Shown here: in pieces, positions 32,301 to 64,000 of the stretch
Position numbering within the stretch: the first letter of the stretch is position 1
How the letters are laid out: each line of letters opens with the position of its first letter
DNA from: Antedon mediterranea
Lineage: Eukaryota; Echinodermata; Crinoidea; Comatulida; Antedonidae
Assembly: GCF_964355755.1 (NCBI RefSeq)
Contig: NC_092671.1
Location: forward strand, 10,489,001-10,553,000
Reading direction: 5' to 3'
Length of the DNA: 64,000 bases
Notes under the pieces: model-generated
The model's database searches: none
What the model saw: only the letters and a program-made list of their open reading frames with translations
What the model was told of the DNA's origin: nothing
Position numbers and translations under genes: made by a program

Positions 32301-35300
32301 TGTCTTTTAATCCATCAAAATGCTATACAATGAACATGACGAGGAGTAAAAATCCACTTACACTTGAATACAAGATGAAAGGAGAGATTCTAACCACTGT
32401 CAAGAGCAGCAAAGACCTTGGAGTCTTAATAACAAATGATCTATCATGGGAACCACACATAAACCAAGTTATAACCGATTCCAATAAGATTCTAGGCTTC
32501 CTAAGGAGAAACTTCTCTCGATGCGACTCTCGTATTAAGGCAACTGCCTATCAATCACTAGTTCGTCCAAAACTTGAATATGCAGCTACAGTATGGGATC
32601 CCCATCAATCACAACTTATAAACAAGCTTGAAATGGTACAACGAAGAGCTGCAAGATTTGCAACATCCGATTACAGAAGAACATCAAGTGTGACATCCAT
32701 GCTACACACACTACACTGGCCAACTCTTCAACAACGTAGGAAAAAGAAAAGATTAATGTTATTGTTACGCTACAGTATGGGATCCCCATCAATCACAACT
32801 TATAAACAAGCTTGAAATGGTACAACGAAAAGCTGCAAGATTTGCAACATCCGATTACAGAAGAACATCAAGTGTCACATCCATGCTACACACACTACAC
32901 TGGCCAACTCTTCAACAACGTAGGAAAAAGAAAAGATTAATGTTATTGTTACGCTACAGTATGGGATCCCCATCAATCACAACTTATAAACAAGCTTGAA
33001 ATGGTACAATGAAAAGCTGCAAGATTTGCAACATCCGATTACAGAAGAACATCAAGTGTCACATCCATGCTACACACACTACACTGGCCAACTTTTCAAC
33101 AACGTAGGAAAAAGAAAAGATTAATGTTATTGTTACTAAAATGAGCTATTAATGAGGAGTTAGCCATTGACATTCCATCATATGTTAAGAAACCATCACG
33201 TCAACAACGAAATACGAACTTGCATAAATATACGCCGATCTTCTGTTGTACACAATGCTACAAATAAAGTTTTCTGCCCAGAACATTAAATGACTGGAAC
33301 AGCCTCCCGACCGAACCCGCGCTGTCTCAAAAAGCCGCATTTGAGCAAGCCCTTGATAAATTCATAAAAAGTTTATAGATAAATAAATAAAACTGAGCAC
33401 ACGTGGCGTACCGTAAGCTGCAAACCCACTGGATTATAGTGCTGAAATCAGCGATGTCCAGTCATCATTCTGAAGATTCTGAAGATTCTGTACTTTTTAG
33501 GCCTACTAGGCCTAGCCTAGCTAGATTAGACTCTCTCTAGACTCTACTACTTACTTACTAATACTAGCCTAGTCTACTGGCCTAGTAGGCTTAGTTAGAG
33601 GCTATTGGCTAGGCCTAAAGCCGCATAGATGGGTAGGCCTAGCCGTAAGTAGTAGGCCTTGGCCTAGGCTTGGATGAGGCCCACTGTACTAAGTAATATT
33701 AGTATGTTAAATTGATGTAAATAAGGATAATAATAAGGCCCTTGCCTTGGGGCCTGGCTGGTAACAAATCTCTTTTCAAAATTGGTTTGCCTTGATTGAT
33801 TGAATTGTTTTGTATTTTCAATGATTGAAATGAAATAAATATTCCAAGATATATAATATACTGTGTCTGTGGGCTATGATGTATGTAGGCTAGGCCTATC
33901 TTATATTTATATTATACTGCAGTATGTGAACTTGTTTTACATTCATTTTGTTTTTTTTTTCTTTAAACAGATATCGAATACTGGTTTTATCATTAACATT
34001 TATGGCATACACTAGCTACCATTTATCACGGAAGCCAATTAGTGTTGTTAAGGTACAGTAAGACAAAGTTCTTTTAACAAAGTTAATTTTTAATATGGTA
34101 GAAAATTAAAAATATTGACTGTTCTTTACCTTTTCAATGTTATGCTTTAAATATATATATATATATATATTGTCCTATAAAACAATTTTGTACACATTTT
34201 TTGGTGAATATGCCATTTTAATGTCACATAATAGTTCTTCACCTGATTTTTTTCTACAAAAGTGAATCTCTGCAAAATGGCCTATTCAAAGTCTGATTTT
34301 ATTAATCTTTATTTTTCAGATTTTTGTTTTTTTTTAAATCTTTAAACATCAATGAATAGCTTTCAATAGATTATTTCATGGACCTATGCATTTATATAGT
34401 TCCATGTATTATTATTAAAATTAGTTCTTAAATTCTTAAACTTCAGAAACTTTTGAATTGTTAGTTTATAGTGCACTCTCCTTATATTTGCCCTTCATTG
34501 CATTGAGGTCTTTGTCATGAATTGTACTACAATTGCATTCCACTCTAATAATAGGTAATCGTCTGAAATTGGTTTGTTTGCTTTTATGACCTTTGTCACT
34601 GATTGATAAGTGTTTTTAGTTTTGCTTACAGTAGTTGCTAACTGTTGATAAATAACAGTATACTAAAATTGTTTTAATTATTCCAATATATACAGTATAT
34701 ATAATGTGAGATAATATGGGAGGTGCTGCTGTCTACCACTTTTAGTGAAAATAGAATTTAAAATATTCAAAGTATAGCAATGCAGTACAACAACAATGAC
34801 TTCAGTAGTACCCTTTCTTTCAAAAATTTTCTCAACATATCTATTGTTTTTTAACAATGAGTTAAAGACCCCTTCCCTGCAATTTTGGACGTTTTTTGGA
34901 AAATAATACATATATATCACTTTAAAAACATTAAACCATGTCATTCCTTATCTTAAATGTACGTTTTATGGTAAATTATGATAAAAAGTGAGAAACAATG
35001 CACTACCTAAGTAGCTCGCGGCGATCGACCTCTCGTGGACGGTCTTAGGCCTAGCCTAGCTAGGCTTAAGTTTTGTAGGCCTAGCTGGTAAATATCGGTA
35101 ACGTACGAACATCGTACGCGAGCTATATACCTATCCTGACGTTGTATAGTTGCTGCATTAATTGTCTTTCTATTTTTGCCAGACTCCGTTGATACAAATT
35201 GGGGAAAACCCGGTATTTTCGCTGAAAAGTTAGGAGTCTTCCATTTGTTTTGGCCTCACGATCGATCGAAAAGTGGGGGAATTACAGGTGAAAAACAAAA

Positions 35301-41300: not shown

Positions 41301-42260
41301 CAAGTTTTTAATGATATTATTAAACTACGTCTGAGGTACAGAGCAGAGTACAGGAGTTTGAATAGTGATACTGAAAATGGATCAAAGTAAGTTAAATTTG
41401 TAGTACTAATTAGTAAGTATTTTTTCATTTAGTTTTGTGAAGAATTCGTATGTGATGAATTCGTATGTGATGAATTCGTATGTGAAGAATTTGTATGTGG
41501 AGAATTCATATGTGGAGAATTCATATGTGGAGAATTCATATGTGGAGAAATCATATGTGGAGAATTCATATGTGGAGAATTCATATGTGGAGAATTTATA
41601 TGTGGAGAATTCATATGTGCAGAATTCATATGTGGAGAATTCATATGTGCAGAATTCATATGTGGAGAATTCATATGTGGAGAATTCATATGTGGAGAAT
41701 TCATATGTGGAGAATTCATATGTGGAGAATTCATATGTGGAGAATTCATATGTGGAGAATTCATATGTGGAGAATTCATATGTGCAGAATTCATATGTGC
41801 AGAATTCATATGTGGAGAATTCATATGTGCAGAATTCACACGTGGAGAATTCACACGTGGAGAATTCACACGTGGAGAATTCACACGTGGAGAATTCACA
41901 CGTGAAGAATTCACACGTGAAGAATTCACACGTGAAGAATTCACACGTGAAGAATTCACACGTGAAGAATTCACACGTGAAGAATTCACACGTGAAGAAT
42001 TCACACGTGAAGAATTCACACGTGAAGAATTCACACGTGAAGAATTCACACGTGAAGAATTCTTAAGTGAATTTATTGTATTGCAATCGAGTGATTTAAC
42101 AGATCATTTTATAATAAAACAAATACATACATACAAACATATTAAAGCTTGAAATTGTTGACAGATAAAAATATACATTTATTTAAAAAAAATTAAATTA
42201 ACTAACAAAAATTGTATTTTGTTTTTCAGACCACTTCTTCAAAATTCTGCTGATGAATGA
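29382..42260 (+). CDS. SLC37A2: SLC37A1/A2-like sugar-phosphate/phosphate exchanger (MFS), complete
   Basis: Fifteen exons: 29382-29443, 33971-34052, 35702-35807, 36313-36527, 36714-36790, 37797-37963, 38276-38313, 38650-38706, 38985-39078, 39454-39602, 40010-40058, 40489-40562, 40976-41149, 41289-41386 and 42230-42260. They join in phase to 490 residues, close to the usual length of about 500. The first exon ([15 protein letters not shown]...) was chosen because its phase and sequence fit the family N-terminus ahead of [10 protein letters not shown] and [12 protein letters not shown]. Other hallmarks are [62 protein letters not shown] and [17 protein letters not shown], followed by [23 protein letters not shown]37 proteins are endoplasmic-reticulum antiporters exchanging glucose-6-phosphate for phosphate. 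The acidic cytoplasmic loop (exons 7-8) is short. Paralogue A1 versus A2 cannot be settled from the sequence alone. A short upstream open frame (29328-29345) precedes the start. Confidence 0.93.
29575..30492. mobile_element. Fold-back element with minisatellite arms (AAGTCGGCC / AACTCGGCC)
   Basis: The left arm (29590-29745) is a tandem series of a 15-16 bp unit CAAGTCGGCCTCAACTCGGCC-like. The right arm (30300-30470) is the same series inverted. Unique arm parts are also inverted: GCCCTAAACCGTCTCGGCC at the outer side and AAAGTATGGAATGCAAAAAG at the inner side, with TGATCATTC near both ends. The centre of about 550 bp is AT-rich and non-coding. It lies in SLC37 intron 1, close after exon 1. 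Confidence 0.8.
30805..31607. mobile_element. Non-autonomous DNA transposon of about 800 bp with 75-bp ends
   Basis: Left TIR 30805-30887 (TACGCCGTGGTTAGGATTCC, GGCACCGGAACTCAACTGCC, ATTGCGCATGCGCAGAGC). Right TIR 31521-31607 is its inverted copy with few changes. TA on each side fits a TA duplication. The interior is AT-rich with no intact coding sequence. It lies in SLC37 intron 1. Confidence 0.8.
31620..33394 (+). pseudogene. 5'-truncated, frameshifted LINE (CR1/L2/Jockey-type reverse transcriptase)
   Basis: A retrotransposon fragment inserted in SLC37 intron 1. Reverse-transcriptase landmarks appear in order: [20 protein letters not shown], then [40 protein letters not shown], and FADGCLLF where the catalytic [FY]ADD box should be. 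The second aspartate is replaced by glycine. The reading frame shifts near 32141 and again near 32236, and a stop interrupts one frame. The thumb/C-terminal part ([32 protein letters not shown]) follows from 32270. A 184-bp segment of this part is present three times in tandem (32587-33138). The element ends with ATAAATAAATAAAA near 33390, a usual non-LTR tail. It lacks its 5' end and endonuclease and is plainly inactive. Confidence 0.88.
32587..33138 (+). repeat. 184-bp triplication inside the LINE 3' part
   Basis: TACAGTATGGGATCCCCATC begins at 32587, 32771 and 32955, exactly 184 bp apart. Each copy runs to TTAATGTTATTGTTACGC (the last one to TTGTTACT). The copies differ at only a few positions, so the duplication is recent compared with the decay of the LINE. 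Because 184 is not a multiple of three, each copy shifts the reading frame. Confidence 0.9.
33395..33970. other. End of SLC37 intron 1, AGGCCTAG-rich
   Basis: After the LINE tail there is a block of AGGCCTA/CTAGACT low-complexity words (33500-33690), then plain sequence up to the acceptor at 33970. The following intron (34053-35701) has a (TA)n run at 34156-34171 and a second short AGGCCTAG block at 35045-35085. No exon or RNA gene seen in either. Confidence 0.5.
37209..37395. mobile_element. MITE with AAGCTCTGTCTACACTATCA ends
   Basis: Left end AAGCTCTGTCTACACTATCA and right end TTTGATAGTGTAAACAGAGC are inverted complements. Inside are two or three degenerate copies of AAATATGGTGGTGATAT. 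The same terminus is found at 22610-22636. It lies in SLC37 intron 5. Confidence 0.75.
37486..37720. mobile_element. MITE with TAGAACCTCTATTAAGAG ends (family member 1)
   Basis: Starts with TAGAACCTCTATTAAGAG and ends with its inverted relative GAGTAGAGGTTCTA. GTGTCCCCTTAA and similar words are repeated inside. Related, more decayed copies lie at 23281-23412, 52231-52412 and 63089-63290. It lies in SLC37 intron 5. Confidence 0.75.
38869..38931. repeat. Perfect 29-bp palindrome with 5-nt loop
   Basis: Arms 38869-38897 and 38903-38931 are perfect reverse complements (TGAGATACCTACC ... GGTAGGTATCTCA) around the loop ATGAG. It ends 53 bp before exon 9 of the SLC37 gene and lies in the intron. 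Its transcript would form a strong hairpin. Confidence 0.9.
40083..40398 (-). mobile_element. tRNA-derived SINE (minus strand)
   Basis: Read on the minus strand: a tRNA-like head with A box TGGCACAGTGTGTTGGA (40390-40374) and B box GGTTCGAATCC (40347-40337), a body containing CACCCAGGTGTATAAATGGG, and an (ATT)n tail at 40100-40083. The body motif resembles the conserved central part of several SINE families of aquatic animals; that comparison is from memory. It lies in SLC37 intron 11. Confidence 0.75.
40651..40809 (+). repeat. Dispersed repeat, copy 2 (partner of 23446-23604)
   Basis: Shares ACTGATGAAGGG, TTTTGTATCTCCATTGA and TTTCAGTAATTTGCCTTTGG with the copy at 23446. In this copy the stem and GAAA part are diverged, so the hammerhead-like layout is not kept. 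Instead CTCTCACT and AGTGAGAG form a local hairpin (40641-40674). It lies in SLC37 intron 12. Confidence 0.6.
41437..42066 (+). repeat. 15-bp minisatellite, 42 copies, in the last SLC37 intron
   Basis: Perfect 15-bp phase over 630 bp. The unit changes in order along the array: GAATTCGTATGTGAT, then GAATTCATATGTGGA (most of the array, with some GTGCA variants), then GAATTCACACGTGGA, then GAATTCACACGTGAA. The right-hand quarter therefore carries about fifteen CACGTG E-boxes and the middle carries CATATG E-boxes. Since 15 is a multiple of three, long open frames appear on both strands; they are not genes. Confidence 0.95.
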
Positions 42261-43828: not shown

Positions 43829-46800
43829 ATGGAAACGACAAAACAAAGTAAAGAAGACTATTTAAAACGATATTTATCGGGATACACAGAAGAAAAAAAG
43901 AAGCATAAGAAAAAAAAGAAACATTCAGTTATAAAACCAAGGTATTATAAGTCACAACTATATTTATATTTGACTTACTAGCTAGGCCTAGTTTTCATTA
44001 CCGTTTGTTTTCACGGCGGCGACAAGGCTTGCGTCCGCCTGTCTGTATGACATCAATGCCTCATTCGACAGGCCTAGGGTCAGCCATGCATGTCTCATTC
44101 ACTGTGCCGGTCATCATCTATCTAGCCTAGTCCCCATCGACATATATATACACTGCAATGTGCATAATATAATATGTATAGTGGTACTGCACTTTCGCAT
44201 TTATTTAGCCAATTTAAAAACATTCACCCGCTGCTTTTTCTCCATGTGCTAACAGTAACAGTAACTCACTGTTTTCTTTCCTTATTATTAACCTTACATA
44301 GTAAATGTAGTTTTTAATTGCACGAATAAATGATTAGGCCTATGTGGTTAGTGCACACATAGCCTTATCACACCTAACTGTATTCTTTATTTTTTGTTTT
44401 GACAGGACAAGAATATTTGATGATGACGTGGATTTATCTCAATTGAATCCAAATTCTGAAGATAAAGATGACGTTCTCTTCGTTGATGAAGCTCCTCAAG
44501 TTGCGGGTAAAACAGTTATTACTCAATAAAAAATAGCCTGATTTAAGCCCCTCTTCTAGCTTGAATTAACATTTAAAATATTGTCAGAACACATAGTTTA
44601 TAAGTGATGTTTATTTTAATTCTAATTATGTAAGTACTGTACAGTATTTAAATATGTTACTGTTATTTCTTTGCAGAAGTAGTTGATGAACGACCATTAG
44701 AAGAAATTGAACTTGAAAAATACAGAACAGGGAAAAAATGGCGTATAATTAATGATGATGAAGGTAAGAAATGTTACACAATTAAAAAAAATACAATTTG
44801 ATAAGCAACACAATTTTTAATAACCATTCTTCAAGCATATATCTTTGTATTTTCAGGAGAAAATCAGATTAACAGTGATGAAGAAGAAAAAATAAGGCTT
44901 GATAAAAAGTCTTACCAAAATAGGCGGCATGATAGCGATTCCGACCAATCTCCACCTAGAAAGAAAAATATGAGGCATGATAGTGATTCTGATCAATCAC
45001 CACCGAGGAAGAAAAATGTGAGGCATGATAGTGATTCGGACCAATCGCCAACTAGAAAGAAAAATGTGAGGCATGATAGTGATTCGGACCAATCACCACC
45101 AAGAAAGAAAAATGTGAGGCATGATAGTGATTCGGACCAATCACCACCTAGAAAGAAAAATGTGAGGCATGGTAGTGATTCCGACCAATCACCACCCAGG
45201 AAAAAGCAAAGTTTGAGAAAAAGTAGGGAGTCTGATCAATCGCCTAGAAGAAAGAAAAAAAGACAGCAAGATAGTGGATCTGATCAATCGCCACCGAGAA
45301 GAAGAAAACATTTACTTGACGATAAAAGTAAACACAAAGATGAAGGTTGTAAACTTAAAAAAACATTATCTGGTTAGTATACAGGCAAACGTCTTTAGTA
45401 ATTTACTTTTTTGGTTTTATTAATTAATTTTAATGTTTAATGTTTGTGTGCCCTCCATGCTTGAAAATTGTTATTTTACTGAAAATCTTTCGCTATTTTT
45501 TGTGTATGTTTCAATCTGATCTATTAAGGTTTACAGTATACAGAATAAAAATTTCCTAAATAATAAAGGTTTAAAAAATTAACAAAAGTAAATTGCGTTT
45601 TCAAAGGTAAATCGGCAGGCCTTCAAGACGCATCGTCAATGCGGATGGAAAATCAACAAAAACGGCAGTCTGATAAGGAGGCACTCGATAGACTTGATCA
45701 TGAAACGTCTGGAAAGAATGCTGGTAAGAATAATATATTTTTTTAAAGCACCAATTTTTTTTAAAGGGTAAATTAGGAGAATTAAGAGTTTGTTGATTTT
45801 AAAATGCATTAGTTCAAAACTAAGATTACAGAATAGAACTTCTGTCTATAATTATTCCATTTTGTTGCCCAATATTTGTCATATATAATATAATTCAATA
45901 CAGCACCTACTGTTTATTACATAGCACCCTCTATGGCCTTAGAATACTTTTATAAATCTAAACTTTTTTTAAGGTACTGTATATCGTGATAAAAGTGGAA
46001 AGAAAAGAGACTTGCATAAGGAAAAATTAAAACATGCAGAAGAATTAAAGAAGGAAGAGGAAGACTCCAAACAATTTAAGGAATGGGGTAAAGGGTAAGT
46101 TGTCTACTCATGAATAGCTGCACGATTCCATAATATACTAATAATGAATGTTTATGAGTGTAATGGTACAAATAATGAATGTTTATGAGTGTAATAGTAC
46201 AAATAATGAATGTTTATGAATAATGGTACAAATAATGGCATAATTGACTGTTCAATAGTGCATACTATTACATGCAATGTGACCCAATCGTCCAATCAAA
46301 TAACAGGAATTTATTTAGGTGTTAGAATGGCAATTATTTATAATGAACATGATTGATCATTCAATTTTCTCTTTTGTGGTATATTCACTATTAACATTTA
46401 AAATTAAATTCCAAATACATTTATTTCTAATTAAAAGCTTACATCTTGAGAAAAAGGATTTATATTCTGTATTATGAAGAAGTGAGTTGTGATATTTACA
46501 TTTCTTTTTGGACAAATAAAAGTTGTCTGTATCTGTGAAATCGTGACGTCCAAGCAACGTAGAACAGAAAGATAACAAACATTTGTGTTTTTATTTTGAA
46601 GAGTTGTTCAAACAAAGAAACATCAGGAGACTATAGTGGATCACATGAAGGAAATGGCAAAACCCTTCGCTAGGTATGAAGGCGATAGAGACTTAGAAGG
46701 GATGCTTAAAAACCAAGAGCGGGAAGGTGATCCTATGTTAGCGTTTATTAAGAAAAAATCAGCAAGGACAAACGCAAAAAATAATGTACCAGGTAAGGTT

Positions 46801-49381: not shown

Positions 49382-52300
49382 ATGGAAGCGTTTCTTTCTA
49401 AAACAAAAAAGGAACTGTCGGTACGTAAAATATGCTAGGCACATGTTTACCTCACATTTGATTCGTCAGTCATATGTGTGTAAACAAAAGATTATCTCTT
49501 GTTCTGTGTGGTTGGTCACGTAGACGACTGGACCCATTATAAAGTCGATTTGCCCTACCTTTCCAACTTGGATACATGTGTTGTTTTAAAATTAAATGTC
49601 AAATTGTTCTGAAATACATTTATTTATTTATTTATTTTAAATTACTACTGTAATGCAGAGTAGAAGAATACAAGAAATATTAAGCTAAGCTAGGTACTGG
49701 TAGGGCTTGTTAAACATCATTAACTGAAACCTAAAAGACCCACCCAGATATTTAATGGATAGCGGTAGACTAACGATGATTAATCATTATTTATTGTTAA
49801 ATATTTCATTTTATTTTTTTTTCGATGTACTGTATTATTTTGTTCAATGAAGTTGTGCAATATTATTGAGTTACACTTACATTTTCTATGCTTCTTGCTT
49901 AAAAAGCCAAATAATTACAAAATGTTTAAGTTTTATCTTTATTTAGTATCAATACTTTATTTACAGATTTTGTAATTTTTGAATGTTCAATATCAATTAA
50001 AAAACTTTATTATTACAGTAAAAACTTGTTTTTTCTTTGCAAGCTCAATGTATTGACAATTAGGCTAACTGATCAAGCTATGTATTTGTATTGGTAATCA
50101 TATTCATACATTGTTGTCAAAGAATTTAAATCCCTTGGAATTCAAATCCTTGCTTTTTAAGCACCTACTGTAAACATAAACAAGAATATTTCTTACACAA
50201 AACGCTGCTCGCTTATTGTTATTGCTAAGGTCAAGTCTGGGGGTCACTTCATCACGCCTAGATACTTCAAGTATCCTATTACAAACAAAAACTTCAATGG
50301 ACTGTTTTGATAATAATTCAATGATTATCTGACAGAGAATTATATCATGGGACTCATAAATACCAGAATGCTTTGGGATTTGTCATTAGACTCTTTTCTC
50401 AGCCGTTTTTGGATTCAACAGGTGGTACCAATAAATTATAGTGGAGTTTCCATTTTAACAAAAATGTCAAAGTGTAGTACTATAAAGCTGCTTGATTTCA
50501 TCTAATGAATGAGTCATCTCGTGTGACGTAGCGGGCTAGAGCAGCAGCGTGAAAAACACCTAGTACTAAAAATTCCCATTCACTCCCCAAGGACATCTTT
50601 GTATACTGCCAGTTTTGTAAAAAAAACTTTATTTACAGTTACATACACTTTACAGTACTAATAATTTACTATACTAATACTACTGTACAGACTGAAGTGT
50701 TCTAGTTTATATACTAATGACATTTAATTGTACAGTTACTGTACAGATGATTCATGGAGTATTTGATTGAGTGTATCCTCTGTGTTTCATTTGTTAATTA
50801 AAGGAATGTTTCAAATTGTATTATACACTGTTTTCGTTTAATTAGTCAAGATTAAAGATTGAAAATTACATAATGACATTACACATTAAAATTATGCATA
50901 AAAAACTTCAAAAAGGCCTACAGTTGTACAGTATGTGATAATTAAAACAAATAAACAAGTGATTTTATTATGAGTGTAGGCTTTTATTTTGTTATACAGT
51001 AGTTAATTAATTTAGTATTTGAATATTTTAAAACAATACATTAATATTACTGGCACTCTTTATCCTTTTATTTTTTAAGGTGGATGGCAAATTTACAAAC
51101 TAAGATAAAGGCTGTTGTTAATAGTAATTTACAGACTACCGTTGTGTTTATTATTTGCCTAAGTTACTGTGGATGTTAAAGTTCAAACTACTGTAAGCCT
51201 ACTGATACTGATATTTTACTCATTAGAGTTGATAATGCTTGGTGTCCAAAGTCCTATATATTATCATTGTGGTTCACATCAAAGTTATTTGTCCTGCTGT
51301 AATCTTTGGAAACTGTTTCTTTTAGTTAAATTGTTATTTGAATTAAACATGTGTACTGTTACATTCTGTAATAAATGACATATACTGTACCCAACCCCAA
51401 CAATGCCACAAACTACAGTATAAATACAGTACAACGTTATAGTGATATATTGCACTACTAGGTGGCGTGTACTGTACCTTGTAAAGATAAAGTGCCAGAG
51501 ATAATGTAAAGAGGACACAGATAATAAAAGCGATGACATACAATGGTGAACTCTCTTTAATGTTTTTAGTCATGTCTCAATCTTATTAGCATTTATGTTT
51601 TTTAAAAGATTGTTCCCAGTGGGACATTATTTAAAAGGTCTGCTTTATTAATTTCTTTAGTAAAAAGAATAACTATGTATATTGAATAATGTAGACTGTT
51701 TAGATGCTATGCCAAAATTATTCTAATGCAGCTAAATGTTAAAAAAAACCAAAAAAAAAACAAAAAAACAAAACAATAACTACTACTAGAATAATTTTGA
51801 CATGATCTCTTATTCACATCACATAAATCATCACATAAGATAGTCTTTTTAAAGATTCATTTAATGATTACCATTTTCAATCATAAGATTGATATTTGCT
51901 GGTATTTATCTTTCTTAGGAATTAGCATCATTTAGCAAAATCAACGTTGTTCTTGGAAATGAGTCATGTGATTTGGACTCAGCAGTTAGCTCGATAGTTT
52001 ATGCTTTTTATCTATCACAGGTAAGGACATTTTACAATTTGAATTATTATTTTTGTATGTTAATTGTCAAGAATATTATTAATTGTATTTTTGTAATAAT
52101 TTCAAAAGACAATTTATTCCACAGGGAAGAAAGCATAATAACACTATATGATGATAAATCAATTTTATGTCAGAAAATTCTCACACTTTACAAAAATATT
52201 GGATCATCTAGAATTAATATGAATAACTGATAGTAGAACGCTTATTAAGAGGACAAATTCAGGACCCAACACATTTTTCCTTTTTCCTCTGATGATACAC

Positions 52301-55300
52301 ATTGTTTTTCATGAAAAAGTGTCCATTTTATAGTGAGTGTTCATTATAGATGTCCCCTGAATATTAAGAATGCCCTCTTAAAAGGGATGTCCCCTAAATA
52401 GAGGTTATTAGATGTAGTTAAAAAAAAACATATATACCATCATTCATTACTGTATATTTTAAGAGAAAGGGTTCCCATAGAGATATGCTGAATAGGGAAG
52501 TTCCCATGAATATGTCCACTGAATACTGTACATGTGGGTTCCACTGTACAACAGTTTAAATGTATGAAACATTTTAAAATAATATACAGTATTTTGTTTT
52601 GTATCTAAATCCTTCAAAATAAATTTTTGTAGTATGATGCAAACAGATACGCTTGAGTAGCATTAGAATAATATTCAGAATACATAACACAATGATGATT
52701 GATTATTAAAGTCTTGAGTCAATCCTAATCAATACCTAGCATTGTAATGCGCTTTAATTAAAGGGAGTACAACCACTTGCTTCACACTGTAATAACGGTC
52801 ATATTGAAGTACAGTAGTCATAAGGAACATTTAAAATACATGCTCTTTCATTTTATTTATTAATATTTTTTTACCACAATTTACTAAATAGTCATAATCA
52901 CTTACATTTACTTTTTTTAATCAATCCCATCGGATATGAATATTCTCATTCATCCATATAGTATTAGGTTTAGAAATATATTAATCAATCCTATCAAACA
53001 TTGGCATACTGTAGCAGTATCAAAGAACAGATTGATAGCTTGGAATTTGCAACTTGCAAACAGGTTTTGCAACTACAGTATGAATGAGGCTTTTAACAGT
53101 GGCGCTTGCAACTACTATGTGGTGCTTGTACAGTAACTGTGGTACTTGCAAACTACTATAGTGCTTGCAACTATAGGTCTTGTAACTGTGTAATTTGCAA
53201 CTATGGAGCTTGCAAAATCTACTGTATTAAATAAGGCTTGTATTTTTGGAGCTTGCAACTATGGAGTTTCTAAATAATGGAGCTTACAACTATGACTTGT
53301 ACAAGGCCAAATAAAACAGATTTAGATTTTGAATTATTTATTCAGTATATCAGTATTTGTTTTCGTTCAGTAATTGTATTCTATCACGGAGAGCTTGTTT
53401 CTCCATGATTCTACCAAATATCATGTTTACATCCATTTTAGCTTCATCCCTGGAAATATAGTGAGTGGGTTGGAATTATTTATAACAGGCTCAAATGATA
53501 TGTTTCTGGAACTTGATTTCACTGTTTGAATTGCTTGTCTTGTGAGAAACTTCAAATTCAATGCAAACAGTTAACACCTTTTGTAATTGAATTTTTTTTA
53601 AATAACAAACAATACATATTCACAGACATAATTACTTGAAAACAGTATCATGCAAGAAAATGGATTTAGAGTTTCAAAAGATTTGCACACACTATGAATA
53701 CTATCTTGACTATTAGTATTACTAAAGACTTAACATTTTATAGGATTTTTATACTGGTACACTTCACCTACAGTACTGTAGTGTATTGTACATTGGTAAA
53801 ACCCTATTCTTTTTGGGGAGAAATTGATTTAATTGGCATTATATACAGTATGTATTCAATGTACAGTAAACCGGCTAATATGACAGTGTTTTATTTTGTA
53901 ATAGTTTAAAGTATGATGTTACAAGGGGTGTACAGTTTACTTAATGTCATCTGAAACTTGAATGTTAAGTGTGTCACTGGTACTTTTAATACTTTCACTG
54001 TTATTGTTAAGTCAATTGTGGTATAATGTTTTTGAAAACATGTGAACTAATACATGTTAGTAAACTACTACAGTATTTTATAGTAGAATAGAGTAGTTTA
54101 CAGAATACTATACTGTACTATAACATCTTTACCATGCTATCTTATAGAAAGAAGATAATCCATTAACACCCTGCATTCCATGTTTTAATATCAACCAAGA
54201 AGATCTTGCTCTACGAACTGAAGCGGTGTATTACCTCGAGAAAAATGGCATCAATTTGAGCAATTTAACTTACCGAGATCAGATAGACTTAGACGAACTA
54301 CACAAAAATAAGCGACTACGCCTCCACCTTGTGGATCACAACACTCTACCCGGCAACGACAGTGACCTTGAGGGTGCTGTTGTAGAAGTTGTGGACCATC
54401 ATAATTTCATTGGTGATGATGCACCTGATGGAGTTATTGAACCTGTAGGTTCATGTTCAACGCTGGTTGCAGAGCATATGTTAGGAGAAGACAGAGATTG
54501 GGTGTCGCAAAATGTTGATGAAACCATTGCAAAGTTATTAATAGGTATTTTCCATGTTTTGATATCTGAAAATATTGGTTTTATGGTTGTATGTAAAATG
54601 CAATTCAGTTTTGTCCTGCCATGTCTTTTTTTTTAATAAACCAGAATAAATAAAAAAAATACATAATTTATAGTTTAGTGAAAAATATTTCACTTTTTTT
54701 ATGTTCGTTAATTGTTAAATACTAGATGGCACGCTCGCTTCGCTCGCGTACCATCTAGGTCGTGCCCACAGATGGTTCTCGAATACACAGTATTTTCCAG
54801 CGAGAAAAAAATGGAGATTTCAAATGTACGTACTGCAGGACTATAATACATTGTCGTTTACAGAAACGAATAAATATACACGATGATTTATGTAGTCAGC
54901 TAAAATTAGCACCCTGGGAATTACTTCCGAGAGAGAAACAAAATGAGTCAAATTTTTTTATTTGGACTCATTTAAACAAACCCAATTTGTGTTTTGAATG
55001 TAACATTAAGGGTTGAGGGATGGGGGAAGAAGATAGGTACAAAGAGGAAACATTTTAAAATATATTCTTATCCACTCAGTAACGAAATATTGTTTTTAAT
55101 GTTTTATAGGCCTATAAATAATATACCACTAAATACAGTAAAACATTTACGATTTAATACTTTGTTAAAACTCTCACTGTCATAGTCTATTGAAATAGTA
55201 AAGTACATGTAACGATACACGTACCACTATGTACGTTTATATATTTTTAAATTATTAATTAATACAAACGTTGAGAAGCAACTGTCAGTAATAACGTTTA

Positions 55301-58300
55301 TTTATTTGTATATTATATGTTTATAATCTAACAATACCTTAACAGTATTGTACAGCATTGCAATACTATTTATGTTTATTCTCCAAGGGGGCCCATAAAT
55401 CTAAATCTATACCTCTATGGTTAAACCAAATAATTTGGAATGTTCCATTCATCACAAATCAATACATTTGTAAAAACGTATATTACATGTATCAAAATAG
55501 CATTTTTTAAAGAAAATCGGCCTGTCTTCAACATCATGATGCTGTACTCGAACTGTTCAACCGGTTTTCAGCTATTAAAAACAATTATCGTAGGAGGAGA
55601 TAGGAAAATGCGAAGCGTCCTCGTATTATTGTGTGCGGGTATTTTTCAAATTGACATCCATTAGACAGTGTATACCACGATCGGAAAACACCCCTATTTG
55701 GGGCAAATCTTTGAACCTAAATTCGTTTTAATCGTCAATAACTAATTATCGAACTCAATTTAATTAGTAAACAGGGTTACATCAGGTGGTTAAAATTAGT
55801 ACCGAAAGTACGAACCAACTTTATATACCATCGCGTAAACATTCTAGAAATAACGCACGATTTACCGATTTTTGCCCTTACGTAAATTTATATATAGATA
55901 CTTTCCTAAATTTACTACATTTCCCGGCCTTGTAACTATTAAGATTTTTTTGTATGATAATATTGTGAACTTTCAGCAAAAATCTGAATTACTTAATCTA
56001 CTTAATTATTAATTTATAATCATAGGAACTATTTTATTTGACACTGTGAAATTATCGGAATCCGCTGGCCGGGTCACTCCTAAAGACGTGAAAATGGTAG
56101 AAGACTTGCAGAAATTTTGTCCAAATATCAACAAAGATGAGGTTTATCAAGAGATACACAATGCCAAGTTTGATGTTGCAGGTAAATATAATTTGGTTTA
56201 TTTTAGATTCACAGTATAACGCAATATTATGGATTAACTGTTTTCTTAAATAATTGAACTGTAGACCTCAACTTAGTAGTGAATCATAGATGAGTGATAT
56301 ATATACTTAACAAACATCTTTATTTTTATAGTCTCATTGAAAAGCTATACTGTTTAGTTATATAAACAAATTACCGTATAGAAAAAAATATGATAATTTA
56401 TAGTATGATGAATACAATTTTATACGATCAGTATATTTTCCCAATCCTCATGTGATTTATAAATGCTATTAGTATAAACTGCATTTGTTAATGCTAATGT
56501 CCTCTAGAAAGCAATTTTGTGTGCTCAATTCTGTTATTAAATCAGTTGTGTATATATTGAAAAATAAATGTGATTTTGGTATGTTTGCATACAGTAAACA
56601 TTACATTTAATGTTGTAACTACAGTACCAAATTGAAAAATAATGAGTTGCAAAATAATGTGATTTTTTGTTGTTGTAGCTGCTATGCAAGCAATGAAATA
56701 GATGTAAATTCTATATAAACTGAGGAATACTGTAAATAAATAGGTTAATTAAATTAATTCTTTCATTTTTTATAATAGTTTCATAAAAAAAATACACATA
56801 CATTTTAATCATGCTTAGTACAGTGTATGAGATATTCTTGGACTCATTATATGAACTTGCAAATAAATTATGAATATTTCCATTACATAATCATGAGGAC
56901 AACTGATGTGACAGAACATCAAGTGTAGACATACTCAATCTGGTACACTACACCATGTGTCGTTATAAACATACTCGTTAATGTCTTTAATTTATCCCCT
57001 ACAGGATTATCAATGCTTGACTTACTTCGTAAGGATTTCAAAACAGTATCGAGTAGAAGAGCTGATAATACTACTGAAAATATCATCGGTATTAGTTCTA
57101 TTACAATAGAGATGGAGGTAAATTTGTAATTCAATATGTCTGTCTATGCATTTGAAATATTGAAGTATTTGGTGTGAACCTTCATTATACAAAACTCTTC
57201 AAAATTGGTGTTGATTTCTTGATTGATTTATAACATGTAATTTTGTTTACAGAAAATATTGCAACGTTCCGGGATGCGTGATGATTTTGAATCGTTTTGT
57301 ACAAGTAGGAATCTTAAGGCACTTATCATTATGACAATATCAATGGACAGTGATGGAACCCCAGAGCGATGGCTTCTGATGTACAATCCTGGAGATTCTA
57401 TATGTCATAACCTAATCCGTACATTGAAAGAAGATCAACAGCTTCAATTGTCCGTTTTAACTGAGGAAGAAGAGGGAGTAACTTTATTTAAGCAAGAAAA
57501 TTCTAAAGTTTCAAGAAAAATTGTCATGCCTGTATTACAGATGTTCTTAGATACTGCAATCTCTGATCAAGATGATTTACTTGGAGGAAACTTTAATAAC
57601 AGTGCTCTTGTAGATTTCTCTGGTGGAGGTGAGGCTTCCAGTAACTTTATGGATTTTGATCCATTTGGAAGCACAACAACAACAAGTTTTGAGGATCAAG
57701 TAGCAAGCAGTGGTAACAATGATCCATTTGGTGATCTTGTAGGAGGAGCGGAAGGATCTGCAAACTTCTCATTTGATCCTTTTGCAACAATTACAGAAGA
57801 TGATCCATCATTTACTTCTCCAAAATCTCCTTTGTCACCTTCTGGACAACAAGCTCCCATTGACCTCTTGGGTATGGATCCTTTCGCGCCTTCAGAACAA
57901 CTTCTCAATGTTCAGGAAGGAGTTTCAGACATGTTCGACCCATTTCAAACAATATCGCCAAGCTCAGATTCATTCAATAGTCAGGAAGACCTACTTGGTG
58001 CACCACCAGCCCAAGCTGACCCTTTTGATTTATTTACAAATAGTAACATTCAAAATTCATCTCCGGTGACCTCAACTGACCCATTTGATATATTTACAAA
58101 TACAGACAGTATCAAATCAACTGAACCGTTTGCAAATGTATCAGAAGATCATGAGAGTGCTAATAGTTTTGAGTTTGTTGAAAAGGTTGACTGTGAGGAT
58201 GAATCTAGTCAAGCTATACCCATCTTAGGCATGCCAAAAAATGTCCCACCAACTCCACAAAACTCATATGCAGACATGAGTGAGCTTAATGTAAACAAAG

Positions 58301-61300
58301 AATTTGATCATAATGAGCTTTTCCAAAAAGTTCAAAAACTTGATTCAGACAGTAGTGATAACATTATAGTATTTAGCAGTAACAGTAATGGTGTTGAAGA
58401 AAATGGTTTTGAAAGATCAATCAATGGATTGCATGATGTAAAAGCTGAAATACAAGTAGATGAAAACAACCAGCAAGAAAAACCAATAGCAACCTTTGGT
58501 AATGGATCTGTTAACATTATTAATGAAGATGACCATGAAATCGGTGAAAAATCATCGCCTACAGATAATGAAATTAGCGACTCTGCAAATAGTAGTAACA
58601 AGTCAAGGACTATAAGTTGTGGTAGTGAAGGGTCTGCCAGTTATACTGATGATCTTTCTGATTCATCCAGTGGAGACTCTTACTCTCTTAATGAAACTCC
58701 CCAATATGCAAGTCATCATGTGATTACTGAGATCCAAGAGGAGGATGAGGAAGAAGAGGAACGTAATGAATATATGGTTGAAAGAAATAATTTAAACAAT
58801 TTTAATATGGCAGCATCTAATAATGCGTCATCGATTCCTGCCATAGTGATTGATGAAGTGCACAAAAGAAGTCAATCTGTAGAAGAATTTGAAGTGCCTA
58901 TGCCATATATTGTAGTTGAAGAAGTTGAAAATATGAACTTTTCGGATGGTGATGAAGAGATAATAGCACAACATGCGGAGAAAGATGATGCTGAGGTAAA
59001 TAATGCTGAAATGTCACATGATATCATTGGTAGTTCAGAAGAGAAACCATCTTCTAATCTTCAAAGGGTTGACAGTGAAGCCGTGGAAGAATATGTGGAA
59101 CATATTGTTGATGCAGCTGTTGATACATTAAATAATGAACACGATTCTTCTACAACATTAGTAAGAGTTGATAGTAAAGCAGTTGAAGAGTATGTAGAAC
59201 ATGTGGTTGATGCAGCTGCCAATTCAATAAGTAAAGAAGTGCCATCTACAAATGAATTAATATTCAATGATAAAGTACTGTCAGAGAACCTTCCAGCTGC
59301 ACTGGTAAGAGTTGATAGTGAAGCAGTTGAAGAATATGTAGAAGATGTGGTTGATGCAGCTGCAAATTCAATAAGTAAAGAAGTCTCATCTACAAATGAA
59401 TTAATATTCAATGATAAACTACAATCGGAGAACCTTCCAGCTGCACTGGTGAGAGTTGATAGTGAAGCAGTTGAAGAGTATGTAGAACATGTCGTTGATG
59501 CAGCTGCAAATTCAATAAGTAAAGAAGTCCCATCTACAAATGAATTACTATTCAATGATAAACTACAATCAGAGAACCTTCCAGCTCCACTTGTGAGAGT
59601 TGATAGTGAAGCAGTTGAAGAGTATGTAGAACATGTGGTTGATGCAGCTGCCAATTCAATAAGTAAAGAAGTGCCATCTACAAATGAATTAATATTCAAT
59701 GATAAAGTACAGTCAGAGAACCTTCCAGTTGCACTGGTAAGAGTTGATAGTGAAGCAGTTGAAGAATATGTAGAAGATGTGGTTGATGCAGCTGCCAATT
59801 CAATAAGTAAAGAAGTCCCATCTACAAATGAAATAATATTCAATGATAAAGTACAGTCAGAGAACCTTCCAGCTCCACTGGTAAGAGTTGATAGTGAAGC
59901 AGTTGAAGAGTATGTAGAACATGTCGTGGATGCAGCTGCAAATTCATTAAGTAAAGAAGTCCCACCTACAAATGAATTAATATTCAATGATAAACTACAA
60001 TCAGAGAACCTTCCAGCTCCACTTGTGAGAGTTGATAGTGAAGCAGTTGAAGAATATGTAGAAGATGTGGTTGATTCAGCTGCAAATTCAATAAGTAAAG
60101 AAGTCCCATCTACAAATGAAATAATATTCAATGATAAAGTACAGTCAGCGAACCTTCCAGCTCCACTGGTAAGAGTTGATAGTGAAGCAGTTGAAGAGTA
60201 TGTAGAACATGTGGTTGATGCAGCTGCAAATTCAATAAGTAAAGAAGTCCCATCTACAAATGAAATAATATTCAATGATAAAGTACAGTCAGAGAACCTT
60301 CCAGCTGCACTGGTAAGAGTTGATAGTGAAGCAGTTGAAGAATATGTAGAACATGTGGTTGATGCAGCTGCCAATTCAATAAGTAAAGAAGTTCCATCTA
60401 CAAATGAAATAATATTCAATGATAAAGTACAGTCAGAGAACCTTCCAGCTGCACTGGTAAGAGTTGATAGTGAAGCAGTTGAAGAGTATGTAGAACATGT
60501 GGTTGATGCAGCTGCAAATTCAATAAGTAAAGAAAACATAACTGTAACTGAATTATGCAATAATGAACCTCTCTTGCCAGAAAAGGCTGCACCAGAACTT
60601 GAGAGAATTGACAGCACAGCAGTTGAGGAATATGTTGAAAATATTGTTGATGCTGCTGCCAATTTAATAAATAAGGAAGATGCTGTTAATAACCCAATAT
60701 GCAATGAGCAAGATCTTCAAGAACCTCCAGCTAAGCTGGAGAAGATAGGCAGTGAAGCAGTAGAAGAGTATGTAGAAAACGTTATTGGTGCTGCTGTTAC
60801 CCAACCAAAAAATATTGATCAGGATCTTCAGACGAAGGAGTCCTCATCAATACTACAAAGAATTGACAGTGATGCAGAATATGTTGGAAATGTAGTAGAA
60901 GCTGCTCAGATTCAGACTGCTTTAAAAAAAGATGAAAATGATTTAAAGCAGAATATTGATATTGAAGATAGTTATCGAGAAGTTGTTAGTAGTGTCATCC
61001 AAAATTCTGAACTGATACAAGGGAGGAATGAAAGTGAAGCTGACCAATTGCTTGTTGAACGAATAGCAAGCATAGATGAACTAGAGAAACAACAAAAGAT
61101 AAGTAATGTTGATTTATCTAGTGATGAAAATAGTTTAGATGGCAGAGATAATCTTGATAGAGATGATATGGTACAAAGTATAGTCAAGGAATCAGATGAA
61201 GTTTTAGTATCTCAAACTGCCTCCTTAGTTCAATCCATGCCACCCGATTCCAGCGATGTAGACCAAAGTAAAAAGAACTCACCAACTGAACACAAAAAGG

Positions 61301-63019
61301 TATTGGCGTTGCCAATGGATTTAGATTTAGATGATGAAGAAGTTGACAATGAGAATGTTAAGAGGAAAATGTCATCATCAGCTGCTGTTGATATTATTGA
61401 GGAAATGGCTGCTGCTGCTTTTCACGAGAAAATACCAACAAAACAACCAACTGATCTTCAAGAAAGTATAAGCATTGATGACTCAATTAATTCTCCAGTA
61501 AGCGGTCTTAGTTTTGATGCTCTAACACCTGAAGAGGAGGTCAAATTTGTGGATTTATTGGTAGCCTCTGTACCAATAGAGAGTACACCGAAGAAGCCGT
61601 TGACAGTTTCTGAAGATATTAAAAAAAAAATTAGCTTTGACTGGAATGATGATGCAGATATCATTGCTAAAGCTGAAGAAAAAATGAAAAGGGTAAAAAT
61701 ATTTTTCTTTTTACTTTTTTTAGTTAATGAACTCGTAGAATTTATGTCATCCCTACTTTTTAATACAGTATAACTTTATTTTTAAATAAAATAATCCAAA
61801 CAAAAATCAGACAAAGTCAGACAACTCTTTAAAGTTGAACAAGAAGCAAGAAATATGAAAACTATTTTGTGTGTCGAAAGTATGTGGAGCCATTTAGACC
61901 ACCTAATTTAAATATTCTATTAATAAAAAAAAATATTATATAATAATAATAAATTTATATAATAATTTAATATAATAATTTGTTCTAAATGCTTAGGTGT
62001 AAACTAAGCCAGCAACAAATTACAGTGATCAATGATTATTATTTTGTCTAATAACATTTTAATACCAGTAACCTTCAAATGTTATGCTTACTATACAACA
62101 TTTGTAAAGTACAATTAATTCAAATGACCCTCAGCATAATTGGTGCAGGTTATAGGTTAAACAACGCAGCTGTAATTGATGTATTTCTTATCTATATAAA
62201 TCTATAAAATTCAGTTTGCTTTTGGCATTTATGACAGCAAGGCCTAGTAAAATAATTGTATATTACATGTTCAGGATTTATTATACAGTAATAGGTCTGA
62301 TATAGAAATGATTAAGGTTTGAATTTTGAATTGTTAAATGATTTATTTAGTTTGTTGGTTGCGATTTATTAAAATCTGGATTAAAAGTGTTTACACTTCC
62401 TGGTTCCTGATTGATTAGCTTCACAGTACTATTGTACTCTATTGTGTCTAGTATTTAAGTTGGTTTAGTCAATAACTGTATTATAGTTTTACCTGCTGCA
62501 GTTTTCTGTATTCATAGTTCTCCAAATAACATCACACTACAATATACATTGTTTTCAAACCAGAAAGACAAAGAATCGTCTGATTATCTTTGTGTTATGC
62601 CATTTTATTTCAGAAGGAACAAGAGAAGGATGCGCGAAATAAAACCCTAAACAAGACTTTGTCTGAAGCATCATTTGCAGCCAAAGTTCGCATGTCAGAC
62701 GTATCCATCAATGAGGAATGGCAGGATGATGACTACTCGCATCAGAAGCTTCAAGGTCTCTCCAACACATTGACTTCACAAGACTCTTTCTTTGCGAGGT
62801 CAGTTCCAACATTGGAGACTGACACTATAGAAGAAGAAAACTATGATGATAAAGAAGTACAGTTAGATGGAGCAATGTTGAGAGCGGATTATTCTTTGAG
62901 AGATCGACGTTTGACAACTGATAGTGCTGTACTAGATGCAGCATATCCAGTTGATGAAGATGATGACGACGACGATGAAGAGGAGGAGAATACTTTCGCA
63001 GAAGAAGAAGAAAGACCTG
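49382..63019 (+). CDS. PRUNE2: PRUNE2 (BMCC1)-like protein: DHH phosphoesterase, repeat region, start of BNIP2-like part; 3' end missing
   Basis: Seven exons seen: 49382-49420, 51919-52020, 54148-54544, 56026-56181, 57005-57117, 57253-61692 and 62614-63019. All join in phase (1,884 residues plus), and the last ends at a GTAAGA donor, so the gene continues. Residues 1-375 are a PRUNE-type DHH-DHHA2 phosphoesterase with every metal-site motif kept: GNESCDLDS (D31, D33), LVDHN (D110), VVDHH (130-132) and TILFD (D185). Such enzymes hydrolyse short polyphosphates and nucleotides in the cytosol. The DHHA2 domain ends near SKVSRKIVMPVLQ. The sixth exon is 4,440 bp, as large central exons are in vertebrate PRUNE2. 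It encodes an acidic Ser/Asp/Glu-rich region with seven DPF motifs (residues 405-547) and fourteen tandem repeats (residues 872-1489). The seventh exon carries NEEWQDDDY, matching the N-terminal EEWQDEDF of BNIP2-family proteins. The lipid-binding BCH/CRAL-TRIO domain should follow outside the window. Confidence 0.9.
49421..51918. other. Intron 1 of the PRUNE2-like gene
   Basis: Intron of 2.5 kb, AT-rich with many ACAGTA/TACTGTA words. No exon, RNA gene or clear transposon seen. The same TACAGTA-rich style fills the next intron (52021-54147). Confidence 0.5.
52231..52412. mobile_element. Decayed member of the GAACCTCTATTAAGAG MITE family
   Basis: AGAACGCTTATTAAGAGG at the left and CCTAAATAGAGGTTATTAG at the right are inverted relatives. 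GTCCCCTGAATATTAAG is repeated inside. It is the same family as 37486-37720. Confidence 0.55.
53040..53300 (+). repeat. Degenerate tandem repeat of GCTTGCAACTAT
   Basis: About twelve degenerate copies of a unit near 20 bp built on GCTTGCAACTA(TGGA). It lies in intron 2 of the PRUNE2-like gene and is non-coding. Confidence 0.6.
54721..55680. other. Repeat-like insert in intron 3 of the PRUNE2-like gene, starting with a 37-bp palindrome
   Basis: 54722-54758 is a near-perfect palindrome, CTAGATGG...CCATCTAG with an inner CGCTCGCTTCGCTCGCG. It is followed by an open stretch (54762-55016, 84 codons) with a CTYC...H...C pattern that could be a decayed zinc finger of a transposase. I see no known domain and no right-hand end that pairs clearly. 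It is described as a probable mobile-element remnant only. Confidence 0.35.
57658..58130 (+). other. Cluster of seven DPF motifs in the PRUNE2-like protein
   Basis: Coding sub-region. DPF occurs at residues about 405, 426, 444, 478, 498, 525 and 545, plus one EPF near 560, in contexts such as DFDPFGS, NNDPFGDLVGG, FSFDPFAT, MFDPFQT and ADPFDLF. DLLG motifs (QDDLLGG, IDLLGM, QEDLLGA) are interspersed. DPF/W and clathrin-box-like DLL motifs are known short linear motifs of endocytic accessory proteins that bind the AP-2 appendage and clathrin. Confidence 0.85.
59059..60910 (+). repeat. Fourteen tandem coding repeats, core ten exactly 144 bp each
   Basis: Units start at 59059, then every 144 bp from 59158 to 60454 (ten units), then at 60598, 60736 and 60853. 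The 48-residue consensus is LVRVDSEAVEEYVEHVVDAA followed by ANSISKEVPSTNE, (L/I)IFNDKVQSENLPA(A/P). The ten central copies are nearly identical in DNA; the first and the last three are diverged and of different length. The amphipathic helix EAVEEYVEHVVDAAA is the part kept best in every copy. The array also leaves a long open frame on the minus strand, which I do not count as a gene. Confidence 0.95.
61693..62613. other. Intron 6 of the PRUNE2-like gene
   Basis: From the GTAAAA donor to the TTTCAG acceptor, AT-rich; no exon, RNA gene or transposon recognised. The preceding exon could read on for 81 bases into this intron to a TAA at 61771-61773, which would give a shorter protein if the intron were retained. 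Confidence 0.6.
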
Positions 63020-64000
63020 GTAAGATTTTGATTATTTTTTCAGTGCACATACTACAGTAAATGTATAATTAATATGCTAGAAGTACAATAGAATCCCTCC
63101 TTTGGGACTCCCTCTTATTCAGTGGACACCCCTATTAAGAGAATACTTGTGAACCAATCAATGACAAATATATGCATTATACATTATAGACAACACCCAT
63201 TCATGGAAACCCTATTTAGTGGTTATCCCTATTAGAAGATAGTATGGAGACACTTTGTTGGGTCCTGGAGGTGTCCCCTTAATATTTATATATTTATTAA
63301 ACTTTTAACAACACTATATGTTCATTCAATTCAATGAGGAATAACCATCATCATTGTCTAAACGCATGATTCTTCATTTCAATTATATAATATACTTGTA
63401 TATTAGAATATAATTTGCTTCAATAATTTGAAATACAGATAATAACTTGGTGCTTGAAAATAATTATGTTCTTGGTTTTCTAAATGTACATTACACTGCT
63501 TTAAAATATTATTTTAAATAATGTTTTATTAATTACACAATTAAATATTGGTTAGGATAACATATTCATAAGTTCATTGGCATCTACTTTTGCATATAAT
63601 CATTCAGTGATTTAGGAAATAGAAGAGATGTTGTTCCGCTATAGGATTTACTGTTAATATCTGGCGAGGAATAGTACTTTAGTCCTATTCTAAGTTATTC
63701 AACCATAATCAGTTTTTAGGGTTTTAACCCATACAATAAAGACATTTTTTGGTATTTTTTAAAGTATTTATATAATTCACTGAAGCATCCATTGACTCAA
63801 AAGAGATAATAGTAGTAGGGGAGTTTTATTTGTTCCCTTCAATAATTTACACTAAAGTGTCATTTTCAAGCAGAAAGAAGTATTTACATTACAATTTATA
63901 AGTTTGGAGCATTTATTTAGTTGACAAATGACACATAGTTGAAATATGGAGTGGAAAGAAGACATTAAAACTGTAAATGAATGCGATCATCTCATGGCAG
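63020..64000. other. Start of the next intron of the PRUNE2-like gene
   Basis: Intron sequence running off the window. It includes a decayed MITE (63089-63290) with ACTCCCTCTTATTCAGTGG, CACCCCTATTAAGAGAAT and GGAGGTGTCCCCTTAAT, of the family at 37486. No further exon recognised. Confidence 0.5.

What the first reader, a model, noticed from the sequence alone, without database searches (positions are those of the whole stretch)
59059..60910. Fourteen AKAP-like helices in tandem in a PRUNE2-like protein
Seen: each 48-residue unit has the helix AVEEYVEHVVDAAANSIS, with hydrophobic pairs spaced V-EE-YV-EH-VV-DA-A. Established: A-kinase anchoring proteins bind the PKA RII dimer through an amphipathic helix with hydrophobic pairs at the same spacing; the Ht31 helix of AKAP13, as I recall it, contains EEAASRIVDAVIEQV, which lines up with EEYVEHVVDAAANSI (EE, VD and the hydrophobic positions coincide). 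Inference: the protein may be a multivalent PKA anchor, or bind another RIIa-type docking/dimerisation domain. The helix is preserved in the diverged outer copies (12 and 13) while the linker is not, which points to selection on the helix. A tyrosine at one core position is not in the strict RII consensus. I know of no PRUNE2 described with such an array.
Basis: partly seen in the sequence, partly recalled or inferred. Interest (0 to 1): 0.8.

Follow-up and report, generated by a model that had tools for sequence, protein, structure and literature searches.

The report
Tandem helix array in PRUNE2-like protein
An invertebrate relative of the human PRUNE2 protein carries a string of about sixteen near-repeated short helices that look built to grip many copies of one partner; the proposed partner, the kinase PKA, is possible, but the helices do not match known PKA anchors closely.

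Summary
The array is real. One 4.4-kb exon of a PRUNE2/BMCC1-type gene (DHH, DHHA2, BNIP2 and CRAL-TRIO/BCH segments all found) holds 14 units. Ten are 48 aa; the flanking ones are 33, 46, 39 and 39 aa. The next exon, starting one base past the window, holds two more diverged copies. The motif occurs nowhere else in the genome.

Each unit is 'LxR[VI]DS' followed by a predicted acidic amphipathic helix (residues 6-26, pLDDT 82-89 over residues 1-20), joined by coil. Amino-acid changes among diverged copies avoid the hydrophobic face (6/36 versus 16/36, p=0.02).

The PKA reading is weak. The units meet a permissive RII pattern that 9% of random bacterial 48-mers also meet. They score below all ten known AKAP helices in every profile tested, and on contact residues alone they look like background. 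The misfits are V at position 6, A at 14 and I at 17.

Upstream are seven DPF motifs (0.2 expected), a clathrin-box-like LLGMD, and LVRVD repeats that fit the clathrin box. So I favour a multivalent helix-docking array in an endocytic PRUNE2 scaffold, partner unidentified.

The parts
51919..54633 (+). Exons of the DHH domain (CDLDS, VDHN and VDHH motifs present)
   Evidence: Pfam DHH 34.8 bits on the joined exon translations
56013..57570 (+). Exons of the DHHA2 domain, the last part at the 5' end of the large exon
   Evidence: Pfam DHHA2 53.6 bits
57253..61692 (+). Large coding exon of 1,480 codons, GT/AG bounded, holding DHHA2 end, DPF region and helix array
   Evidence: open frame and splice sites
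57658..58089 (+). Seven DPF motifs plus LLGMD (clathrin-box-like) and repeated DLLG: AP-2/clathrin-type motif cluster
   Evidence: 7 DPF against 0.21 expected, maximum 3 in 5,000 shuffles
59059..59157 (+). Unit 1 (33 aa), LQRVDSEAVEEYVEHIVDAAVDTL
59158..60597 (+). Units 2-11, ten tandem 48-aa units LVRVDSEAVEEYVE(H/D)VVDAAANSIS + linker (unit 11 linker diverged)
60598..60735 (+). Unit 12 (46 aa), LERIDSTAVEEYVENIVDAAANLI
60736..60852 (+). Unit 13 (39 aa), LEKIGSEAVEEYVENVIGAAVTQP; proline at helix position 24
60853..60969 (+). Unit 14, degenerate; helix has a 2-residue deletion
62614..63019 (+). Next coding exon, acidic, no helix unit
   Evidence: splice sites and open frame
64000..64000 (+). 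Splice acceptor at the last base of the window; the following exon (genome C2:10553001 on) carries units 15 and 16, outside the window

Best explanation
The gene is a PRUNE2/BMCC1-type protein whose long disordered middle works as a multivalent docking platform. Seven DPF motifs, and probably clathrin-box-like sequences, tie it to AP-2/clathrin membranes. Downstream, about sixteen beads-on-a-string units each present an N-capped, acidic amphipathic helix that folds into a hydrophobic groove on one partner, so many copies of the partner are gathered on one chain. The helix array, its uniqueness in this genome and its bias against change on the hydrophobic face are shown. That it docks a groove-bearing partner is inferred. 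The partner is not identified; a D/D-domain protein (PKA R subunit or a relative) is one candidate, not the favoured one.
For: AF2 on one unit with 14 aligned units: helix 6-26, pLDDT 82-89 over residues 1-20. On three units: three separate helices, coil linkers, no packing, but confidence is low, pLDDT 42, pTM 0.16. Hydrophobic moment 0.44, p=0.003 against shuffles, best angle 94 degrees, near Ht31 at 92. Changes in diverged copies: 6/36 on the hydrophobic face, 16/36 on the rest, p=0.02. dN/dS among units 2-10: 0.12 for the helix block, 0.65 for the linker, from small counts. Linker length and sequence are free to change in outer copies. 15 of the 16 copies found, and nothing else in the genome. 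Seven DPF motifs against 0.21 expected. Human BMCC1 binds AP-2 through aa 575-904, a region without a recognised domain (PMC3765211).
Against: No partner or binding is shown. Units 2-10 are near identical, so they are recent copies and partly lack independent evidence of selection. Per-site dN/dS for the hydrophobic face alone is not lower than for the polar face (0.49 against 0.41). Units 12 to 15 and 13 to 16 show pN near or above pS over the 25-codon block. No other species could be compared. Expression was not testable.
Confidence: 0.5

Rival explanations
1. A multivalent PKA anchor (AKAP): each helix docks the D/D dimer of RII or RI, placing many PKA holoenzymes on a PRUNE2 scaffold whose DHH module is of a family once reported to hydrolyse cAMP.
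For: Hydrophobic spacing as in Ht31 and AKAP-IS; best similarity to Ht31, P=0.003 uncorrected; permissive RII pattern met by units 1-12; aliphatic at all seven positions of the published consensus LxxxAxxIVxxAIxxA, score 10-15 reached by 0.05-0.4% of bacterial 16-mers; acidic flanks as in known anchors; RII, RI and SPA17-like D/D domains encoded. The cAMP-phosphodiesterase report for human prune is cited in PMC3022644 and PMC4170634.
Against: Below all ten known AKAP helices in every profile variant; V6, A14 and I17 do not fit known helices; the species' RII groove looks ordinary (sequence), so no compensating change is expected; the permissive pattern is met by 8.6% of bacterial 48-mers; conservation of LxR[VI]DS is not explained by it.
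Confidence: 0.15
2. Clathrin-box array: LVRVD at the start of each amplified unit binds the clathrin terminal domain; the helix is mainly a spacer or secondary contact.
For: LVRVD fits L-Phi-x-Phi-[DE] in ten units; the strict form occurs in only 2.6% of bacterial 48-mers; seven DPF motifs and LLGMD lie in the same exon; LxRVDS has the lowest dN/dS in units 2-10, 0.01.
Against: Units 1, 12-14 and 16 have Q or E at the second position and unit 15 lacks the motif, so the outer copies do not fit; does not explain the constraint on the helix face; arginine inside the motif is unusual (own knowledge).
Confidence: 0.13
3. Largely neutral expansion of a coding 144-bp minisatellite (a multiple of three) in a disordered region; the helix is incidental.
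For: Ten recent near-identical copies, a frame-keeping period, other minisatellites in the same window, pN near pS for the pairs 12/15 and 13/16.
Against: Hydrophobic-face bias; helix block and linker differ in dN/dS; the two copies in a separate exon keep AV-YV-[VI][VI]-A.
Confidence: 0.17
4. Phospho-switched array: LxRxxS fits basophilic kinases (PKD/CaMK type) and the serine sits at the helix N-cap, so phosphorylation would stabilise the helix and tune docking. Compatible with the best explanation.
For: Pattern in 14 of 16 units; AF2 starts the helix at this serine in the unit model.
Against: The pattern is common, 11% of bacterial 48-mers; unit 16 has H in place of S; D5 and V4 may simply be helix-capping residues.
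Confidence: 0.2

Closest known systems
PRUNE2/BMCC1 (BNIP2 family, human KIAA0367)
   Same: DHH + DHHA2 at the N-terminus, long disordered middle, BNIP2/CRAL-TRIO (BCH) at the C-terminus; AP-2 association of the human protein (PMC3765211)
   Different: Tandem helix array and DPF cluster; no such array found in the papers searched. A 2009 paper reported no BMCC1 homologue in frog, fish or invertebrates (PMC2655648)
AKAP RII-binding helices (Ht31 of AKAP-Lbc, AKAP-IS, MAP2)
   Same: About 18-residue acidic amphipathic helix with hydrophobic pairs every four residues; EE-VD-A coincide with Ht31
   Different: Contact residues V6, A14, I17 do not fit; profile score is at background level; ten or more copies, against one to three helices named in the papers read (BIG2 three candidates; PMC13025221)
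Endocytic AP-2/clathrin adaptors (epsin, Eps15, AP180)
   Same: Clustered DPF and clathrin-box-like motifs in a disordered region
   Different: No ENTH/ANTH/EH domain seen; no UIM or NPF; the helix array is not a known adaptor motif

Membership tests
PRUNE2/BMCC1 | DHH and DHHA2 domains at the N-terminus | tested here: met
   DHHA2 53.6 bits, DHH 34.8 bits, both above cut-off
PRUNE2/BMCC1 | BNIP2 and BCH/CRAL-TRIO region at the C-terminus, same strand | tested here: met
   BNIP2 63.6 bits, CRAL_TRIO_2 31.5 bits in exons 3-7 kb past the window end; joining into one transcript is inferred
AKAP | Amphipathic helix with paired hydrophobic residues every four positions | tested here: met
AKAP | Permissive RII signature (pattern recalled from the literature) | tested here: met
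   Units 1-12 match; so do 8.6% of bacterial 48-mers
AKAP | Contact residues like those of known RII helices | tested here: not met
   Score -8.4 against 11-35 for ten known helices left out one at a time; seven of the ten sequences are recalled, of which AKAP7 was checked against PDB 4zp3
AKAP | Pfam RII_binding_1 | tested here: not met
   Array not among hits; the model covers only 19 positions, and Ht31 finds no other AKAP peptide in the PDB either, so this carries little weight
AKAP | Binding to PKA R subunit | not testable with these tools
   No complex modelling allowed; RII, RI and a SPA17-like D/D domain exist in the genome
AP-2/clathrin-binding protein | Cluster of DPF motifs | tested here: met
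   7 against 0.21 expected
AP-2/clathrin-binding protein | Clathrin box L-Phi-x-Phi-[DE] | tested here: inconclusive
   LLGMD and LVRVD of ten units fit, outer units do not
Ubiquitin-interacting motif | Phi-x-x-A-x-x-x-S-x-x-[DE] core | tested here: not met
   No match in the array; not in Pfam results

The most novel reading that the evidence does not exclude
A single scaffold with about sixteen PKA-anchoring (or other D/D-docking) helices fused to a prune-type phosphoesterase module and AP-2 motifs: a high-valency PKA concentrator at endocytic membranes, using a helix that departs from the known RII consensus.
Probability: 0.12. Interest if true: 0.75.

Novelty: new variant of a known kind. 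Interest (0 to 1): 0.38.

Why it matters
PRUNE2's long middle region has no assigned structure, although human BMCC1 binds AP-2 through part of it. This orthologue shows discrete, countable, selectable modules there: DPF motifs and a helix array. If the helix's partner were found, it would give a handle on what the middle of PRUNE2 does; if it were a D/D-domain protein, it would be the most multivalent such anchor I know of.

Tried and rejected
Histone-fold reading: Pfam CBF/NF-Y reaches 32 bits only by summing over repeats of one helix, with no other part of the fold. UIM, NPF, FxDxF, LIR, YxxPhi and B56 motifs: absent from the array. PDB sequence search with one unit: nothing relevant, and Ht31 itself finds only its own peptide entry plus a chance hit, so a blank says little. 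Helical solenoid: no packing in the three-unit model, but its confidence is low. The AKAP10 helix searched in the genome gave no control hit. Antisense ORF 59061-60716: a by-product of a period divisible by three. A literature search for PRUNE2 with tandem repeats and anchoring gave nothing. A literature search to name the organism gave nothing.

Full report
OBSERVATION. The window lies in a 354-Mb genome of 18 contigs. RIIa searches find one RII, one RI and one SPA17-like D/D domain, which suggests an invertebrate; the species was not identified. A gene on the + strand begins with DHH exons (51919 and 54148 on) and DHHA2 (56013-57570), confirmed by Pfam on the joined exons. The large exon 57253-61692 then runs open for 1,480 codons. 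Past the window, exons on the same strand match BNIP2 and CRAL_TRIO_2.

The array is as described, with corrections. Unit 1 is 33 aa, units 2-11 are 48 aa, unit 12 is 46, unit 13 is 39, and unit 14 is degenerate. A search of the whole genome with the helix finds 15 of the 16 copies in this gene and no other place. Two copies lie in the next exon at window-equivalent 64009 and 64141. That exon aligns collinearly with units 12-14 at 68%, with well-aligned gaps of 6, 12 and 9 bases, so it is a duplicated array end that kept its frame.

ANATOMY OF A UNIT. The conserved block is LxR[VI]DSxAVEEYVEx[VI][VI]xxA. AlphaFold2 on one unit with 14 aligned units gives a helix over residues 6-26 with pLDDT 82-89 over residues 1-20 and a poorly defined linker. 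Three consecutive units give three separate helices, but overall confidence is low. The helix is acidic and amphipathic; its hydrophobic moment peaks at 94 degrees per residue, against 92 for Ht31 and 88 for AKAP-IS.

SELECTION. Among units 2-10, dN/dS is 0.12 for the helix block and 0.65 for the linker; the LxRVDS part has 0.01. The counts are small: 4 replacement and 7 silent variants against 9 and 4. Among diverged copies, amino-acid changes fall on the hydrophobic face in 6 of 36 cases and elsewhere in 16 of 36, p=0.02. Per-site rates corrected for silent changes do not separate the two faces (0.49 and 0.41), and the pairs 12/15 and 13/16 show pN near or above pS over the whole block. Selection on the helix is therefore suggested, not proved.

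IS IT A PKA ANCHOR? Similarity to Ht31 is better than for 99.7% of random bacterial 48-mers; that is the best of 13 helices tried and not corrected. The permissive pattern [AVLISE]xx[AVLIF][AVLI]xx[AVLI][AVLIF]xx[AVLISE], quoted from memory, matches units 1-12, but also 8.6% of bacterial 48-mers.

Against: a profile built from ten AKAP helices gives each known helix 11-35 when it is left out, and nearly no bacterial window reaches that; the consensus unit gets -8.4, reached by 4% of windows, and its best other register gets 4.0, still under every known helix. The misfits are V at position 6 (known: A or S), A at 14 (known: mostly I or V) and I at 17 (known: almost always A). Of the ten helix sequences, Ht31, AKAP-IS and an AKAP10 variant were read in a paper and AKAP7 checked in the PDB; the rest are recalled. 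The species' RII D/D sequence (IPPGLTDLLQDFTVSVLKEKP) looks ordinary beside human RII as I recall it, with no sign of a changed groove.

CONTEXT. Between the DHHA2 end and the array lie seven DPF motifs in 230 residues (0.21 expected, maximum 3 in 5,000 shuffles), an LLGMD clathrin-box-like sequence and three DLLG. DPF is the classical alpha-adaptin ear ligand (own knowledge). Human BMCC1 binds AP-2 through aa 575-904, a region with no recognised domain (PMC3765211). LVRVD at the start of the ten amplified units fits the clathrin box, a pattern found in 2.6% of bacterial 48-mers; the outer units do not fit. LxRxxS fits basophilic kinases in 14 of 16 units, and its serine is where the predicted helix begins.

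MOST LIKELY MECHANISM. A disordered, AP-2-linked PRUNE2 presents many copies of one docking helix. Shown: array, helix prediction, uniqueness, DPF cluster. Inferred: groove docking, multivalency, endocytic site. Unknown: the partner. I give 0.5 to this, 0.15 to PKA anchoring as the specific case, 0.13 to a clathrin-box array, 0.17 to a mostly neutral expansion; phospho-tuning at the N-cap is a compatible addition.

NOVELTY. Tandem short-motif arrays in disordered scaffolds are a known kind; this one, in PRUNE2, was not found in the papers searched. A 2009 study reported no BMCC1 homologue in frog, fish or invertebrates (PMC2655648); this gene contradicts that for invertebrates, though later databases probably already do (own knowledge).

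Noticed in passing
57658-58089: Seven DPF motifs, LLGMD and three DLLG in about 230 residues: an AP-2/clathrin motif cluster that could explain the AP-2 binding reported for human BMCC1.
   Followed up: partly
genome C2:10553001-10553320 (L011:1001-1320), starts one base past the window: Exon that is a collinear, frame-keeping duplicate of array units 12-14, carrying units 15 and 16.
   Followed up: yes
44805-45377: Coding repeat [15 protein letters not shown] in six copies, resembling the repeats of BUD13 as I recall them.
   Followed up: no
41436-42062: 15-bp unit repeated 42 times, open in at least four frames on both strands; probably a minisatellite rather than a gene.
   Followed up: no
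5282-6550: Satellite with 77-bp unit nested in 228- and 459-bp higher-order periods.
   Followed up: no
31640-33136: Pieces of a non-LTR retrotransposon reverse transcriptase, followed by three tandem 184-bp copies of its end.
   Followed up: no
genome C8:1838531-1838638 (L010): A SPA17-like D/D domain protein, another possible binder of AKAP-type helices in this species.
   Followed up: partly
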